A stretch of DNA of 64,000 nt from Bacteroidota bacterium (lineage in GTDB: Bacteria; Bacteroidota; Bacteroidia; NS11-12g; UBA955), in assembly GCA_027488835.1 (NCBI GenBank), contig JAIYAW010000007.1, forward strand, positions 186,001 through 250,000, read 5' to 3'. The notes beneath the pieces are model-generated. The model was not told where the DNA came from and made no database searches. It saw nothing but the letters and a program-made list of their open reading frames with translations. Each line of letters starts with the position of its first letter. Positions within the stretch are counted from its first letter, which is position 1. Positions 11,256 through 18,806 of this stretch are shown here, piece after piece. Position numbers and translations under genes: made by a program.

Positions 11256-11921
11256 ATGGACATTGAATTCAATGGCATAATTCCCAACCCACTTGCCGAA
11301 TTTGTTACAGAAAACAGCATTTGGAATTCAACTTTTACATTTACCCAAGGCAATAAATATCAAATTGTTGCTCCTTCCGGAAAGGGAAAATCAACCTTGG
11401 TGGGTATCATTGCGGGCACCCGTGGTGATTTTAATGGCAATCTTCTTTTTGAGGGACAAAATACCCGCCAATTCAATCCCATGCGTTGGAGCCATTGGAG
11501 AGCCAACGAATGCAGCGTCGTTTTTCAAGATTTGCAACTTTTCCCTAAACTTACCGTATTGCAGAATTTGTCTTTGATGAACGAAATTCAACAAGCGCAC
11601 GACAACAATACATCCCCAAATAACCAAACAAAAGAAAGGCTTTTTGATTGGGCAAAACAACTGGGCATTGAAAGCAAAATAGATGTACTTGTTGGAAATT
11701 TGTCGTTTGGTCAAATGCAACGCGTTGCCATTTTAAGGGCATTGAATAGGCCTTTCAAATGGATTGTTTTGGATGAGCCCTTTAGTCATTTGGATGCAGA
11801 GAATTCTAAAATTGCTCTTGATTTGATTAAAAGTATTTCCGCAAGTCAGAACGCGGGAATTATTGTTACAGCTCTTGACAGTCGGTTTTCAATTGAAGGA
11901 TTTACACCCGTAAATATTTAA
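11256..11921 (+). CDS. ABC transporter ATPase (LolD/MacB-type) with degenerate motifs
   Basis: 221-residue nucleotide-binding subunit for the permease that follows one base later. Walker A is APSGKGKST (about 39-47) with the first Gly replaced by Ala; Q-loop VFQDLQLFP; signature LSFGQ (near 148) rather than LSGGQ; Walker B WIVLDEP; D-loop SHLD. At the H-loop, where TH is expected, the sequence is VTALDSRF, so the switch histidine is missing. The size and order fit LolD-like partners of FtsX-type permeases, which drive mechanical work in the envelope rather than classic transport. The changed signature and lost His may mean slow or regulatory ATP use. Confidence 0.9.
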   Translation: MDIEFNGIIPNPLAEFVTENSIWNSTFTFTQGNKYQIVAPSGKGKSTLVGIIAGTRGDFNGNLLFEGQNTRQFNPMRWSHWRANECSVVFQDLQLFPKLTVLQNLSLMNEIQQAHDNNTSPNNQTKERLFDWAKQLGIESKIDVLVGNLSFGQMQRVAILRALNRPFKWIVLDEPFSHLDAENSKIALDLIKSISASQNAGIIVTALDSRFSIEGFTPVNI

Positions 11922-11922
11922 G

Positions 11923-13146
11923 ATGAGTCAGAAAATAATCTCACGTATTTTTATTAAAACACAAAAGCCAAGTCAATTGATTGGTGCAATTATAGGCTGC
12001 TTTTTAGGGTTTTTCTTGATATTTATTGCTGCACAATTGTTTGCTGATTTCAAAACAATGGTGAATAGCCAAGAGCAATCTATTGGAAGCCAGTTTTTGG
12101 TTGTCAACAAACAAGTTTCTGTTCTAAACTCATTCAAACTTGGCAAAAGCACATTTAGCAAAAATGAAGTGGATCAACTTAAATCACTTCCCTCAATAAA
12201 AAGAATATCTGAATTTACAGCAAACCAATTTGAAGCAGTTGCTTCGATGTCTATTCCAAATGGAGAATCTTCATCGGCATTTCGAACAGAGTTATTCATG
12301 GAAAGTGTGGGTGATGATTTTTTAGATGTAAAACCCGACGATTGGAATTGGCAAGAGGGAAATGAAATGATTCCGATGATTTTGCCCACAGATTTTATCA
12401 ATCTTTACAATTTCAATTTCGCGCCTGGCCGGGGCTTACCGCAAATGTCGAAATCTACCATTCAATTGGCGGTTTTTGATATTGACATTCGTGGCGCTCA
12501 GGGAGCAGCACATTTCACGGGTAAAATAGTTGGATTTAGCAACCGAATTTCATCGGTATTGGTTCCTAAAAGCTTTATGATTTTTGCCAATTCTCACTAT
12601 GGAAACAATCAAATAAAGCCTGAATCTTACCGAATTATTGTTGAAGCAAAACAGCAAGAATTGCCTAAAATTCAGCAGTATTTTAAAGATGAGGGATATG
12701 AAACCAACGAAGAATTATTGAAAAACGGCAAATTTGGGAGTTTACTTCAAGCAATTTTAGGTATACTCGCCGTGTTGGGAATAATTGTCATGTTTGTTTC
12801 GGTGAGTTCATTTGTATTGTATGTACAATTGGCGATTTCTCGTTCTAAATATGAGATTGAAACTTTGCTAAGGCAAGGCTATCCCCACAAAAAAATTGTA
12901 CACTGGTATTCAAAACAACTGGCCTTGATATTTGCGATCATTGCCATAGTGAATTTAACCTTGGTTTGGGGGATAAAAAGTATTACCAATTCATACCTCG
13001 GAGATTTTGGATTTGAGGCTCCGGCGCAACTAAATATTTTCATCATTGTGGGAAGTTTTTTAATGATTGGAATATTATGGATTATTCAAACATTGAGTGT
13101 GCGCGGTCAAATTTATTCATTGGCATTGCCAAATTCAAAAGGTTAA
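11923..13146 (+). CDS. FtsX/MacB-type ABC permease
   Basis: 407 residues. One membrane helix near the N-terminus (about 20-42, LIGAIIGCFLGFFLIFIAAQLF), a periplasmic domain of about 230 residues, then three C-terminal helices (about 276-302, 325-346, 371-393). The stretch VSSFVLYVQLAISRSKYEIETLLRQGYPHKKI is the FtsX coupling region. This 1+3 topology is that of LolCE/MacB/FtsX half-permeases. It is co-transcribed with the ATPase at 11256 and the DUF4836-like protein, so the three probably form one envelope machine. Substrate unknown. No terminator was found downstream; 13147-13417 shows only AT-rich sequence. Confidence 0.87.
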   Translation: MSQKIISRIFIKTQKPSQLIGAIIGCFLGFFLIFIAAQLFADFKTMVNSQEQSIGSQFLVVNKQVSVLNSFKLGKSTFSKNEVDQLKSLPSIKRISEFTANQFEAVASMSIPNGESSSAFRTELFMESVGDDFLDVKPDDWNWQEGNEMIPMILPTDFINLYNFNFAPGRGLPQMSKSTIQLAVFDIDIRGAQGAAHFTGKIVGFSNRISSVLVPKSFMIFANSHYGNNQIKPESYRIIVEAKQQELPKIQQYFKDEGYETNEELLKNGKFGSLLQAILGILAVLGIIVMFVSVSSFVLYVQLAISRSKYEIETLLRQGYPHKKIVHWYSKQLALIFAIIAIVNLTLVWGIKSITNSYLGDFGFEAPAQLNIFIIVGSFLMIGILWIIQTLSVRGQIYSLALPNSKG

Positions 13147-13417
13147 AGTAGGCTGTAAATTCGGAGTTTATAAACGCAAACCAAAACCAGTTTCACTGGT
13201 CGTTAATAACCAACCAACCACTTAGTTTTCAAAAATTTAATGGCTGGATAAATGGATTTCAGTTTATCGCACATAAAATTTTGAGCATTATTCCTCAACT
13301 TTGAAATAATCAAAGATCAAAATAGAATATAAAATATATTTATACTGATCATAATGATATTAAATGATTGTAGTTCAAAAACAATATAGATTTTATGAGA
13401 TCATTGAAATATGTGAA

Positions 13418-13425
13418 TATATTTG
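13418..13425 (+). promoter_or_regulatory. Promoter -7 box of the Cys-rich protein operon
   Basis: TATATTTG, perfect TAnnTTTG, 18 bases before the ATG at 13444. It overlaps an in-frame TTG at 13423, which therefore cannot be the real start. Confidence 0.7.
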
Positions 13426-13443
13426 CGTCTAAATATAAAACAT

Positions 13444-14526
13444 ATGAAACTAAAAAATTTACTCTTATTAACCGTTTTAGCCATGTGCGCTTCTCTCAAT
13501 GCTCAAAGCGCTGGGGCTGTTTACGGTGCTACCAAATCTACCGGCACAGCAGCTGGTGGTGGCAACAATGTTGATTTAAAAATGTGTTGGATGGAAACTT
13601 ACGGTAGAGGTGCCGGAACAATTCCAACTGGTTGTACTGGTGGCAAATCAAACCAAAATGGATTATGCTATACTGCATGCCAAGCTGGCTATTATGGCGA
13701 AGGTCCGGTATGTTGGCAAGATTGCCCAGCAGGATTTAGAAATGATGGTGCATTTTGTGGTAAGCCTGCAGCTTATGGCCGTGGAGGAGGATATCCTTGG
13801 AAATTTGGCGACGGATTTAATGACAGAGGAATGTACAAAAGATGCCAAAATGCTCACGGTTCAGGTAACTGCGAGAAAAATGGTGCAATTGTATACCCAA
13901 AATGCAGATCAGGTTTTTACAACGTAGGTTGCTGCGTATGTTCTCCAAATTGTCAAAATGGAATGGTTGACATTGGAGTATCTTGTACCAAAAAGTCTTA
14001 TGGACGTGGTGCTGGAACAATACCTAATGGTTGCAATGACGGAAAAATAAATCAAGGTGGATTATGCTACACAGCATGTCGTACCGGATATAAAGGCGTT
14101 GGGCCCGTTTGTTGGGCTGAAAATTGCCCTACTAGATTCCCAACAAAATGTGGAATGGGTTGTGCAGTAAATTCAACTGAATGCGGTTGGGCAATTTTTG
14201 ATCAAGTTTCATCGGTAGGTGAATTTGTATTTAATATTGCTACTTTTGGATCAGGTGGAGCAGCAGCAAAGGGTGCATCAACTGCGGCTAAAACTGCTGG
14301 GAAAGCAGCTTCAAAAACTGTTGCTAAAGAAACAATGAAGCAACAAATGAAACAAAAAGCAAAAGATTTGGGTCAAGAATTGGCTGAAACTACTGCTGAG
14401 AATGCAGCTTTAACTTGCTACGATGCGCAACTTACAGGCGAATTTGATTGGGCTAGTTTAGATCCTACTGGAATAGCGAATATTGTAAATGCGTTTAACA
14501 AGCCGCTTTGCAAAGATTTCCATTAA
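13444..14526 (+). CDS. Secreted cysteine-rich protein with YGRG repeats
   Basis: 360 residues with a signal peptide ending SLNAQ. The mature part holds about 25 Cys, nearly all in its first 230 residues. A unit of about 40 residues occurs twice (about 52-91 and 188-227): YGRGAGTIPxGCxxGKxNQxGLCYTAC, then GYxGxGPVCW. Between them are YGRGGGYPW, a CxxxC-rich block (VGCCVCSPNC) and DIGVSCTKKSYGRG. The tail changes character: GWAIFDQVSSVGEFVFNIATFGSGGAA, then an Ala/Lys/Gln-rich helix and two last Cys. I recall similar YGRG/DIGVSC proteins from algae and other eukaryotic microbes as well as bacteria, but cannot check. Function unknown. It is followed six bases later by a thioredoxin-fold gene, which suggests dedicated disulfide handling. 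Confidence 0.8.
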   Translation: MKLKNLLLLTVLAMCASLNAQSAGAVYGATKSTGTAAGGGNNVDLKMCWMETYGRGAGTIPTGCTGGKSNQNGLCYTACQAGYYGEGPVCWQDCPAGFRNDGAFCGKPAAYGRGGGYPWKFGDGFNDRGMYKRCQNAHGSGNCEKNGAIVYPKCRSGFYNVGCCVCSPNCQNGMVDIGVSCTKKSYGRGAGTIPNGCNDGKINQGGLCYTACRTGYKGVGPVCWAENCPTRFPTKCGMGCAVNSTECGWAIFDQVSSVGEFVFNIATFGSGGAAAKGASTAAKTAGKAASKTVAKETMKQQMKQKAKDLGQELAETTAENAALTCYDAQLTGEFDWASLDPTGIANIVNAFNKPLCKDFH

Positions 14527-14532
14527 TATCGT

Positions 14533-15384
14533 ATGCGTTATCTAAAAACGATTACTTTAGTATTATTTTTATTAACGAATAAATTACTTATTTCTCAAGG
14601 CATAAACTTCAATTCTGAAGTTTATGCAGTTGAGGAGTTTGAAAATATTGTTAAAAAAAGCAAAAAACCAACACTGTTGATTGCTTTTTCATCTCATTGC
14701 GATATTTGCGGTCACATGGATACCGCCGTTTATCGCAAAAAAGAGGTTGGAAAATTCTATAACAAAAATTTTACGATCTGTAAAATAGACTTAGAAAAAG
14801 AGTTTGCCAATGCTTTCATAAGTAAATACCAAATCTATGGTTATCCTACATATCTGTTCTTTAATACCAATGGAGTATTGATGCACAGGCAAAAAGGCGG
14901 ATTTCCTGTAAAAGAATTTTTGGAGTTAGGACATGACGCGTTAGATCCAGATAAACAATTTTTAAGTGCAAGCTTTAAATTCCAATCTGGTGTTAGAGAG
15001 CAAGAATTATGTAAAAATTTAGCTGAATCGGCCAAAGAAATGGACGACATTGAACTTCAAAGAAAATGCGTGATTTGTTATTTAGACCAAAACAAAAATT
15101 GGGGGACTGATGAAGCGGTTAAGTTTATTTTCAAGTTTACCGAAAGCATTCAAGAACCTCAATTTCAGTTTGTAATTAAAAACAGAAGTTTATTTGAGAA
15201 AATAATTGGTGCAGGTAAATTCTCGGAAAAATTCGACAATATCATTTTAAAAGATATTGCTGAAAATGCATACAACCAAGAAATGGGTATTTTAGACACA
15301 ACAAAAGCAAAAGAATTTGCTGCACAATATTTACCCTCCTTTGAAACCGAAAAAGCCTTGTGGTTATTTAATTCAAATGAATGA
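14533..15384 (+). CDS. Secreted thioredoxin-fold protein (N-terminal part of a split gene?)
   Basis: 283 residues. A signal peptide ends near residue 21 (LLISQG). Residues ~33-140 are a thioredoxin fold of the thioredoxin_7 type with the redox pair C56-D-I-C59 in AFSSHCDICGHMD, and a cis-Pro motif GYPTYLFF. The rest is helical. It should act in the periplasm on disulfides; its place just after the 25-Cys protein makes that protein its likely client. The frame ends at 15384 while the next frame (from 15377) continues with TPR-like helices. In related Bacteroidota proteins, as I recall them, the thioredoxin domain and a C-terminal TPR-like tail sit in one chain, so this may be a frameshifted gene or a coupled pair with an ATGAATGA overlap. 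Confidence 0.82.
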   Translation: MRYLKTITLVLFLLTNKLLISQGINFNSEVYAVEEFENIVKKSKKPTLLIAFSSHCDICGHMDTAVYRKKEVGKFYNKNFTICKIDLEKEFANAFISKYQIYGYPTYLFFNTNGVLMHRQKGGFPVKEFLELGHDALDPDKQFLSASFKFQSGVREQELCKNLAESAKEMDDIELQRKCVICYLDQNKNWGTDEAVKFIFKFTESIQEPQFQFVIKNRSLFEKIIGAGKFSEKFDNIILKDIAENAYNQEMGILDTTKAKEFAAQYLPSFETEKALWLFNSNE

Positions 15385-15730
15385 ATTAATTAGAAAAAAC
15401 GACACAACCAATTACATCAATTCTATTTTCAGTTATTTCAGCAAATTCCCCTCTAGCAATGGATATTTAATTACCAATCTTTCGCAATCTGTAGCAGATT
15501 TAACCACCGACACAGTGTACTTAAAAAAATCTTTAGAAATTGCGGAGAGATCGTATTTGTTTATGCAAGATGAAAAATGTTATTTGAATGCTGCAGACAT
15601 TGCAATCAAATTAAACAATTATAAAAAAGCATACGCTATTTTGTTAGAAGGACAAGAATATGGAATGAAAGAAAAAAGGAAATTTTATAAAATAAATGAA
15701 CTAATTATTCAATTAAAACAAAAAATCTAA
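15377..15730 (+). CDS. TPR-like helical protein overlapping the thioredoxin gene
   Basis: 117 residues if started at the ATG at 15377, which overlaps the previous stop by eight bases (ATGAATGA). It has no signal peptide. The text is all-helical, with YLKKSLEIAERSYLFMQDEKCYLNAADIAIKLNNYKKAYAILLEGQEYG resembling one or two TPR units. Lacking a signal of its own, it makes best sense either as the C-terminal half of the thioredoxin protein joined by a frameshift, or as a cytoplasmic product of translational coupling. I favour the frameshift reading but cannot separate this from a sequencing error. Confidence 0.6.
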   Translation: MNELIRKNDTTNYINSIFSYFSKFPSSNGYLITNLSQSVADLTTDTVYLKKSLEIAERSYLFMQDEKCYLNAADIAIKLNNYKKAYAILLEGQEYGMKEKRKFYKINELIIQLKQKI

Positions 15731-15736
15731 AAAAAT

Positions 15737-16111
15737 ATGAAAAAAATTATTATGTTCACAATGATTAGTCTAATGACTGTTCATGTGTCACTTGCCCAAG
15801 AGGTTAAAGAAGACAAAACAACTACTGAGCAAGTTGTTCTACCAACTGATCCAAAAGAATTAAATGATGCAAAAGTTTACTTGGAGAGTGTAATCGCAAC
15901 TTCACAGGCTGATTTAGCAACAGAAGAAAAAGCATTGGCTACATTAACCGCCAATAAAGCCAAATTAGACGCAACAGATCCTGAATTAAAAGTAGCATTA
16001 TCTGAAATGGAAATCATGAAAAAAGATATTGCACACTTTAAAGAACTATTGGTTATGTATAACAAAGAATTAGTATTGGTAAACGAAGCAATTGCTAAAT
16101 TACCTCATTAA
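15737..16111 (+). CDS. Small secreted coiled-coil protein
   Basis: 124 residues; signal peptide ending SLAQ near residue 21. After an acidic/Thr linker the mature part (about 40-120) is a continuous helix with heptad-like Leu/Ile/Val spacing and many Glu/Lys (ATSQADLATEEKALATLTANKAKL ... MEIMKKDIAHFKELL), so it probably forms a coiled coil in the periplasm. No Cys in the mature protein. Last gene of the Cys-rich/thioredoxin operon, six bases after the preceding stop and followed by a terminator. Family not recognised. Confidence 0.75.
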   Translation: MKKIIMFTMISLMTVHVSLAQEVKEDKTTTEQVVLPTDPKELNDAKVYLESVIATSQADLATEEKALATLTANKAKLDATDPELKVALSEMEIMKKDIAHFKELLVMYNKELVLVNEAIAKLPH

Positions 16112-16160
16112 TTGCTTTCTATACACTTTGATTTAGAAATCTAAATTTAATATTCAACCG

Positions 16161-16191
16161 AAAAAAGCAACCAAATTGGTTGCTTTTTTTT
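16161..16191 (+). terminator. Intrinsic terminator of the Cys-rich operon
   Basis: AAAAAAGCAACC-AAATT-GGTTGCTTTTTTTTT, about 50 bases after the stop at 16111. Confidence 0.88.
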
Positions 16192-16326
16192 AAGAATAAG
16201 TCATACATACTTGTCTGTATTTTTTTATATACAATTATAATCCAATGGATTAAATTGCGTTTCTACACATATTTGATTCTTACGAGGATTAATATTCAAT
16301 ACGCATAAATTGCCATTACTGAGCAC

Positions 16327-16358
16327 AAAAAACCCTTGAATGAGAACATTCAAGGGTT
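16327..16358 (-). terminator. Intrinsic terminator of the FKBP gene
   Basis: Arms CCCTTGAATG and CATTCAAGGG around an AGAA loop; on the minus strand it is followed by TTTTTT. It lies about 50 bases past the stop at 16409. Confidence 0.85.
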
Positions 16359-16408
16359 TCAATGCAACCAGTTTTAGATGAAAACTAGGTGGTAACTTAA
16401 AATATATC

Positions 16409-17158
16409 TTAACGCATGCCTCCCATCTGCGGCATTGCGCCAGCTGGAGATGGTTTAGGAGGTAAACCTGGAGTCACTTTCAAAATTTGAATTTCAAAAA
16501 TAGATACCCCGTAAGTATCTTCAAAAGTTGCAGCAGAACGAGCCAATGCAGGATGTAATTCATTAGAAATGGTTACTTCACAAGTTCCACCCTCTTGGGT
16601 TTTTTGGAAAGCTTCTTCTAACGGAGCTAATCCCATCATAGCTACTGTGCCTCTGATTGGTTTTGGACTCTTAGTATTGTCTTCGATTACTTTACCTTTA
16701 CCGGTTTTGAATACCCATTTGAATTCAACAGTATCGTAAGCTTGTGGCGCTGCACCATTACCTGCTTTGATTACTTTATAATAAGCTTTGCTTGGAAGTT
16801 GTATAACACCAGACTCTTTTGCTTTGTCGTTCATGAATTTTTTAGTGTCGTCTTGCACTTTTTTCATTTTTTTACCTTGAACGCTTTTTACGAAATTACG
16901 TTGAACGCCATCCATTTGAGCTTCAGAAATTGCAAAACCACTGTCTTTTGACATGGCATCTTGTACACCATGAATGAATGCACCATAAGCCAATCCTTCA
17001 AGACCTTCTTTTTTCAAAGATTTACCTACACTTAATCCAACCACATAACTGAAAGAATCTTCAGATGTTTTTGGGGCAGCTTTCGTATCATACGATTCAC
17101 CGCAACTTGCCAAGGCCATTATCAACAACCCAGACAAACCTATACTTAATTTTTTCAT
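16409..17158 (-). CDS. FKBP-type peptidyl-prolyl isomerase lipoprotein
   Basis: 249 residues from the ATG at 17158; a TTG 15 bases upstream is in frame but gives no better signal. The lipobox LASC (Cys near 20) makes it a lipoprotein. Residues ~30-110 match the FKBP_N dimerisation domain (SYVVGLSVGKSLKKEGL ... FMNDKAKE), and ~115-225 the FKBP fold (YYKVIKAGNGAAPQAYDTVEFKW). The catalytic domain is divergent: the usual GxxxDGxxFDSS and GWxEGLxxM text is replaced by GKGKVIEDNTKSPKP and MGLAPLEEAFQKTQEGG, so proline isomerase activity is uncertain and a chaperone role is possible. The tail is Pro/Met/Gly-rich. Own terminator downstream; ABC-F gene 28 bases upstream on the same strand. Confidence 0.85.
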   Translation of the reverse strand: MKKLSIGLSGLLIMALASCGESYDTKAAPKTSEDSFSYVVGLSVGKSLKKEGLEGLAYGAFIHGVQDAMSKDSGFAISEAQMDGVQRNFVKSVQGKKMKKVQDDTKKFMNDKAKESGVIQLPSKAYYKVIKAGNGAAPQAYDTVEFKWVFKTGKGKVIEDNTKSPKPIRGTVAMMGLAPLEEAFQKTQEGGTCEVTISNELHPALARSAATFEDTYGVSIFEIQILKVTPGLPPKPSPAGAMPQMGGMR

Positions 17159-17186
17159 TTTGATTTTCAACAAATTTTAGTTATAT

Positions 17187-18806
<1,620 letters not shown>

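What the first reader, a model, noticed from the sequence alone, without database searches (positions are those of the whole stretch)
13444..16111. Operon pairing a 25-cysteine YGRG-repeat secreted protein with its own thioredoxin-fold protein
Seen: four frames in a row with gaps of about six bases and one promoter/terminator pair. The first codes for a secreted protein with about 25 Cys, two copies of a YGRGAGTIP/GPVCW unit and a helical tail; the second has a signal peptide and a CDIC redox site; the fourth is a secreted coiled coil. Inference: the thioredoxin-like protein folds or reduces the Cys-rich protein, and the set acts outside the cell. I recall similar YGRG/DIGVSC proteins in algae and other eukaryotic microbes, which would make this a family shared across domains of life.
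Basis: partly seen in the sequence, partly recalled or inferred. Interest (0 to 1): 0.82.

Follow-up and report, generated by a model that had tools for sequence, protein, structure and literature searches.

The report
Cysteine-rich secreted protein with private foldase
A freshwater bacterium carries a small inserted gene cassette for a secreted protein built from an undescribed cysteine-rich module, next to a gene for a thioredoxin-type enzyme that probably folds it; unrelated bacteria pair the same module with other thioredoxin-type enzymes, which suggests a recurring two-part system.

Summary
The Cys-rich protein (13444-14526) and its thioredoxin-fold neighbour are real and under strong purifying selection. 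Two details change. ORFs 2 and 3 are one ~397-aa thioredoxin-TPR gene in all three close relatives, split here by a 4-bp ATGA duplication, so there are three genes, not four. The terminator belongs to the insertion site: the cassette (13149-16151) is a clean insert, absent from the same site in a sister genome.

The protein belongs to a bacterial family with no Pfam or NCBIfam model and no match among solved structures. AlphaFold folds the Cys-rich domain with pLDDT 94. It is scattered over several bacterial phyla, alone, with a helical tail, or fused to lipases, phosphoesterases or lectins.

The redox pairing passed a test that could have refuted it. Distant homologues sit beside different thioredoxin-fold genes (ScsC/DsbA in Acidobacteriota, DsbA-type in a cyanobacterium and a Nitrospirales, TlpA-like in Runella), always on the same strand. 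Three newly sampled Acidobacteriota homologues all had the ScsC/DsbA neighbour.

Most likely the neighbour is a dedicated periplasmic oxidase or isomerase for this multi-disulfide secreted protein. What the mature protein does is unknown. The cross-domain claim has only indirect support, from giant-virus structural matches.

The parts
13149..16151 (+). Inserted cassette, absent from the same site (between FtsX-like permease and FKBP genes) in sister genome G069
   Evidence: blastn of window 11801-17300 against the empty site L108: matches end at 13148 and resume at 16152, with only about 10 bp between them in L108
13444..14526 (+). Cys-rich secreted protein P0001: signal peptide, YGRG/GPVCW Cys-rich domain, helical tail
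   Evidence: dN/dS 0.08
13576..14187 (+). Cys-rich domain (residues 45-248; 23 Cys), predicted as a row of about ten beta-hairpins
   Evidence: AlphaFold2 pLDDT 93.9, pTM 0.67 with 33 homologues; no PDB match
13585..13758 (+). First YGRG...GLCY..C..GY.G.GPVCW..C..G....GA.C unit (residues 48-105)
   Evidence: alignments A3, A5
13759..13986 (+). Middle block AYGRGGGYPWKFGD...NCEKNGAIVYPKC...VGCCVC...DIGVSC (residues 106-181)
   Evidence: alignment A3
13987..14184 (+). Second YGRG...GPVCW unit and CGMGCA...C end (residues 182-247)
   Evidence: alignment A3
14188..14526 (+). Helical tail with conserved DPTGI..VV.AF..P.C motif (14461-14511)
   Evidence: conserved in 23 members; low-confidence helices
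14533..15384 (+). Thioredoxin-fold partner, N-terminal part, signal peptide, CDIC at 14698-14709
   Evidence: Pfam Thioredoxin/Thioredoxin_2; CxxC kept in 4 of 4
15377..15384 (+). ATGAATGA: 4-bp tandem duplication that splits the thioredoxin-TPR gene; leaves a stop/start overlap
   Evidence: DNA alignment with L010
15377..15730 (+). C-terminal, TPR-like part of the same thioredoxin gene, now a separate frame
   Evidence: aligns to residues ~286-401 of the intact relatives; dN/dS 0.09
15737..16111 (+). Small secreted helix-rich (coiled-coil-like) protein; present in 3 of the 4 cassettes, not in L012
16160..16192 (+). Intrinsic terminator, resident at the site before insertion
   Evidence: fold -18.6 kcal/mol, z -7.1; also present in empty site L108

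Best explanation
The cassette encodes a Sec-exported protein with up to eleven or twelve disulfides and, beside it, a periplasmic thioredoxin-fold enzyme that makes or reshuffles those disulfides (a dedicated oxidase/isomerase). The mature protein then acts in the envelope or outside as a binding or effector module. Shown: conserved Cys spacing, gene linkage and co-occurrence, intact CxxC in the partners, recurrence with different thioredoxin subfamilies, confident fold prediction of the Cys-rich domain. Inferred: periplasmic location, direction of the redox reaction, direct interaction, and the mature protein's role.
For: The thioredoxin-TPR partner is found in exactly the same 4 of ~70 family genomes as the Cys-rich gene (Fisher p=1e-6), and the pair lies at different chromosomal places in L010, L011 and L012. 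Distant homologues have thioredoxin-fold genes immediately next to them on the same strand: ScsC/DsbA in L028, L033, L037, L039, L041; DsbA in cyanobacterial L051; Thioredoxin_4/DsbA in Nitrospirales L061; TlpA/AhpC-like in Runella L031. From the genomes' own DSBA counts, 0.05 such DSBA neighbours were expected in 26 loci against 7 seen. Held-out test: three further Acidobacteriota homologues found afterwards all have ScsC_N+DSBA neighbours, two downstream and one upstream. CxxC and the Pro of the GTP motif are invariant in the ten DsbA-type neighbours. ScsC with its N-terminal stalk is a trimeric disulfide isomerase (PMC5524982). The Cys-rich domain folds with pLDDT 94 into hairpins. All cassette genes are under purifying selection.
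Against: Many homologues have no recognised thioredoxin-fold neighbour (L022, L023, L025-L027, L035, L043, L045, and the lipase, phosphoesterase and protease fusions), so pairing is not universal. The window's own partner gene is frameshifted, unless that is an assembly error. Most of the Acidobacteriota cases may be one inheritance event; the tree needs 5 label changes, with 3 forced by well-supported branches. No interaction or redox measurement exists. The domain has an odd number of Cys (23).
Confidence: 0.68

Rival explanations
1. The Cys-rich protein is a metal (for example copper) binder and the thioredoxin-fold partner keeps its thiols reduced or protects it from copper, as ScsC proteins are linked to copper tolerance.
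For: The Acidobacteriota partners carry the ScsC N-terminal domain; ScsC is tied to copper resistance (PMC5524982, PMC8900818). GCCVC in the middle block could bind metal.
Against: Confident hairpin prediction with regularly spaced Cys fits disulfides. The GCC positions are not kept in L023, L037 and L051. The Flavobacteriales and Runella partners lack ScsC_N.
Confidence: 0.12
2. The YGRG protein with its helical tail is a secreted toxin or membrane-active effector (the Cys-rich part binds a target surface, the tail inserts); the thioredoxin partner matures it. This is compatible with the best explanation and differs in what the mature protein does.
For: Hydrophobic stretches in the tails of several members; one member weakly matches SseC; fusions to lipases, phosphoesterases, ricin-type lectins, tectonin, F5/8C and PAN domains; patchy, inserted cassette.
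Against: Tail hydrophobicity is modest in the window's own clade (about 1.0-1.1); AlphaFold gives no confident tail fold; no immunity-like gene was recognised.
Confidence: 0.22
3. Adjacency to redox genes is hitch-hiking: mobile cassettes that happened to carry both.
For: The cassette behaves as an insert; the tree is at odds with organism relationships, with the Flavobacteriales copies nearest to Thiothrix and an acidobacterium.
Against: Different thioredoxin subfamilies in different lineages, both gene orders, always the same strand, and a successful held-out test.
Confidence: 0.07

Closest known systems
Dedicated periplasmic oxidoreductase-substrate pairs (DsbL/DsbI with arylsulfate sulfotransferase in uropathogenic E. 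coli; Grimshaw et al. 2008, cited in PMC6067686)
   Same: A thioredoxin-fold enzyme dedicated to one exported disulfide protein
   Different: Here the substrate is an undescribed Cys-rich module, and lineages use different thioredoxin subfamilies; no DsbB/DsbI-like partner was seen in the cassette
ScsC trimeric disulfide isomerases (PMC5524982, PMC8900818)
   Same: Acidobacteriota partners have ScsC_N plus DSBA domains with intact CxxC
   Different: The window's partner is a thioredoxin-TPR protein without ScsC_N, and a copper link is not shown
Thioredoxin_2/Thioredoxin_7-type exported thioredoxins of Bacteroidota
   Same: Domain type of the window's partner (the Thioredoxin_7 match itself is just under its cut-off)
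   Different: Joined to a TPR-like C-terminal half and, in the family, confined to genomes that carry the Cys-rich gene
Extracellular Cys-rich hairpin modules (furin-like Fu1-Fu2 of R-spondin, EGF-like Pvs25, insulin-receptor Cys-rich region)
   Same: Rows of small disulfide-bonded hairpins; weak, non-significant Foldseek resemblance
   Different: No significant structure or sequence match; the YGRG/GPVCW signature and bacterial distribution are its own

Membership tests
Dedicated thiol oxidoreductase-substrate pair | Thioredoxin fold with CxxC | tested here: met
   Pfam Thioredoxin, DSBA and Thioredoxin_8 matches; CxxC intact
Dedicated thiol oxidoreductase-substrate pair | Gene beside, and co-occurring with, the Cys-rich substrate gene | tested here: met
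   4 of 4 cassettes and the same 4 of ~70 genomes; 8 distant loci plus 3 held-out
Dedicated thiol oxidoreductase-substrate pair | Catalyses disulfide formation or isomerisation in that substrate | not testable with these tools
   needs biochemistry
ScsC disulfide isomerase (window partner) | ScsC_N trimerisation segment before a DSBA domain | tested here: not met
   P0002 matches Thioredoxin, Thioredoxin_2 and, weakly, Thioredoxin_7, not DSBA or ScsC_N
ScsC disulfide isomerase (Acidobacteriota partners) | ScsC_N plus DSBA domain | tested here: met
   L028, L033, L037, L039, L041, L114, L115, L116
Known Cys-rich extracellular families (EGF, furin-like, TNFR) | Match to the family's profile | tested here: not met
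   No such Pfam match in 23 members; no NCBIfam match in 33
Known Cys-rich extracellular families (EGF, furin-like, TNFR) | Same fold | tested here: inconclusive
   Best Foldseek PDB match of the domain has E 1.7; no VIA-align match with Z of 2 or more
Pore-forming or injected toxin | Recognisable toxin domain or confident membrane-insertion element | tested here: inconclusive
   Modest tail hydrophobicity, low-confidence tail model, single weak SseC match
Family shared with eukaryotes and their viruses | Homologues with conserved Cys spacing in eukaryotes or giant viruses | tested here: inconclusive
   BFVD structural matches E 7e-11 to 9e-7 at 17-25% identity, but low TM-scores and sequences not available; no relatives in IMG/VR scans

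The most novel reading that the evidence does not exclude
A modular, widely exchanged secreted Cys-rich domain (YGRG/GPVCW), shared by bacteria and by giant viruses of eukaryotes, whose bacterial owners repeatedly and independently recruit a private disulfide foldase from different thioredoxin subfamilies; with its helical tail it acts as a surface-targeting effector.
Probability: 0.25. Interest if true: 0.78.

Novelty: new variant of a known kind. Interest (0 to 1): 0.6.

Why it matters
The Cys-rich domain is a coherent family, spread over many bacterial phyla, that current family libraries do not name, and it comes with a testable handle: a partner enzyme. Pairing one substrate module with at least three thioredoxin subfamilies would be a natural experiment in how disulfide foldases acquire specificity. 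If the giant-virus matches are true homologues, the module also links bacterial secreted proteins to viruses of protists.

Tried and rejected
Enterovirus VP2 similarity of residues 115-189 (phmmer E=0.0024): gone with the family profile, treated as chance. Viral contigs: four scans of IMG/VR gave only unrelated GVGPVCW strings. Plasmids and phages: no match. PHROGs: one weak hit to the helical tail only. PDB fold searches of the whole model and of the domain alone: nothing significant. Literature search for the motif strings: only unrelated papers. Four-gene reading of the operon: rejected. Terminator as part of the cassette: rejected. Cyanobacterial survey: only the known singleton in 386 genomes, so no second held-out test there.

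Full report
Identity of the window. The window is G000:C2:186001-250000 of a 2.49 Mb genome; its closest relatives with the cassette are Flavobacteriales MAGs. The upstream genes code for a DUF4836 protein, an ABC ATPase and an FtsX-like permease; downstream on the other strand are an FKBP and an ATPase with two ABC-type nucleotide-binding halves (read from the sequence).

Checking the observation. P0001 (13444-14526) has a signal-peptide-like start, 25 Cys after it, and 23 of these in residues 45-248. P0002 (14533-15384) is a thioredoxin-domain protein. P0003 (15377-15730) overlaps it. In the three relatives with the gene (L010, L011, L012) P0002 and P0003 are one 397-401 aa protein. The DNA alignment shows a 4-bp tandem duplication in the window. 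Both halves show low dN/dS (0.06 and 0.09), so the split is recent, an assembly error, or tolerated through the stop/start overlap. The cassette is therefore Cys-rich gene, thioredoxin-TPR gene, and in three of four cases a small helix-rich secreted protein.

The cassette is an insert. In G069 the permease and FKBP genes are neighbours without it; blastn places the insert at 13149-16151. The terminator at 16160-16192 is also in the empty site. G069 has its own cassette copy elsewhere (L012), and in G067 the same site holds a phosphopantetheinyl transferase, a 1323-aa AMP-binding/PP-binding/hexapeptide protein and a 268-aa exported protein. The Cys-rich gene is in 4 of 70 family genomes, none of the further genomes sampled in the order, and few in the class and phylum samples.

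The family. One scan of genome contigs with the four-member alignment gave 49 loci in Bacteroidota, Acidobacteriota, Myxococcota, other deltaproteobacteria, gamma-, beta- and alphaproteobacteria, Chloroflexota, Nitrospirota and a cyanobacterium. Cys and Gly spacing is conserved, with invariant C79, C90, C197, C208, C212, C223, C236, C247 and a C-terminal DPTGI..VV.AF..P.C. No Pfam or NCBIfam model matches the Cys-rich domain. The domain occurs with the helical tail (window type) or fused to Lipase_3, alpha/beta hydrolase, Metallophos, ricin-B lectin, tectonin, F5/8C, PAN, or Ig/cadherin-like domains, and to proteins with an HEFGH motif that no Pfam model covers. These are exported-protein contexts. 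The Flavobacteriales copies group with copies from Thiothrix and an acidobacterium rather than with Runella, which indicates horizontal exchange.

Structure. With 33 homologues the domain alone is predicted at pLDDT 93.9 as a row of about ten two-stranded hairpins; the tail is helical with low confidence. No solved structure matches. In predicted viral structures, five proteins match the whole model with E between 7e-11 and 9e-7, among them a Megaviridae environmental protein and a clandestinovirus protein named hemagglutinin. TM-scores are low (0.14-0.26) and the sequences could not be fetched, so this is a lead, not a test.

The redox partner. A profile of the window-type thioredoxin found no such gene beside the distant homologues, but Pfam on their immediate neighbours did find other thioredoxin-fold genes. 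ScsC_N+DSBA lie beside L028, L033, L037, L039 and L041; DSBA beside cyanobacterial L051; Thioredoxin_4/DSBA beside Nitrospirales L061; a TlpA/AhpC-like protein beside Runella L031. Gaps are 42-224 bp, and all eight are on the family gene's strand. In the flanks of all loci held, strong DsbA-type hits occur only at these adjacent positions. Given the number of DSBA genes in the 26 genomes, 0.05 adjacent cases are expected by chance and 7 are seen; counting only three independent lineages, P is about 2e-5. A later, separate sample of 396 genomes of that phylum gave three new homologues, and all three have an adjacent ScsC_N+DSBA gene. Gene order is DsbA first in some and second in others, so adjacency has outlasted rearrangement.

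Mechanism. The most economical reading is a dedicated foldase. The multi-Cys protein is exported unfolded and must reach one of very many possible pairings, so an isomerase or oxidase beside it in the genome is useful. The N-terminal stalk of ScsC is what makes that family a disulfide isomerase (PMC5524982), and the Acidobacteriota partners carry it. Known pairs such as DsbL/DsbI with arylsulfate sulfotransferase set the precedent (cited in PMC6067686). Whether the Flavobacteriales thioredoxin-TPR protein acts the same way is inference. The role of the mature protein (adhesion, enzyme targeting, effector) is open; the fusions suggest surface binding or delivery.

Limits. Pairing is not universal: Syntrophaceae, Thiothrix and the enzyme-fusion members have no such neighbour in the flanks examined, although not every neighbour was scanned with Pfam. 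Acidobacteriota cases may share one origin. Cellular eukaryotes could not be searched.

Noticed in passing
window 13149-16151; L108; L107:1285-6736: The intergenic site between the FtsX-like permease and the FKBP gene looks like an insertion hotspot: empty in G069, YGRG cassette in the window and G068, and a phosphopantetheinyl transferase plus 1323-aa AMP-binding/hexapeptide protein and a 268-aa exported protein in G067. No transposase was noticed.
   Followed up: partly
window 15377-15384: 4-bp ATGA duplication splits the thioredoxin-TPR gene but leaves an ATGA-type stop/start overlap, so both halves could still be translated.
   Followed up: partly
L029:4660-6885, L032:6231-8654, L053:3678-5816: Proteins with an HEFGH motif (metalloprotease-like) and a C-terminal YGRG domain that match no Pfam family over their whole length.
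   Followed up: no
BFVD A0A5J6VJY1, A0A8F8KL79, E5EQ87, A0A6M6DDH0, A0A142BZK2: Predicted viral proteins, including a Megaviridae sample and clandestinovirus, match the AlphaFold model of P0001 with E 7e-11 to 9e-7.
   Followed up: partly
window 13444-14526: The Cys-rich domain has an odd number of Cys (23), and the conserved tail Cys (C356) is present in nearly all tail-bearing members, so a domain-tail or intermolecular disulfide is possible.
   Followed up: no
L033, L039, L041, L115: In several Acidobacteriota the YGRG/ScsC pair lies beside an ECF-type sigma factor-like gene on the other strand; in L037 and L116 beside response regulator-like genes (by reading, not by family search).
   Followed up: no
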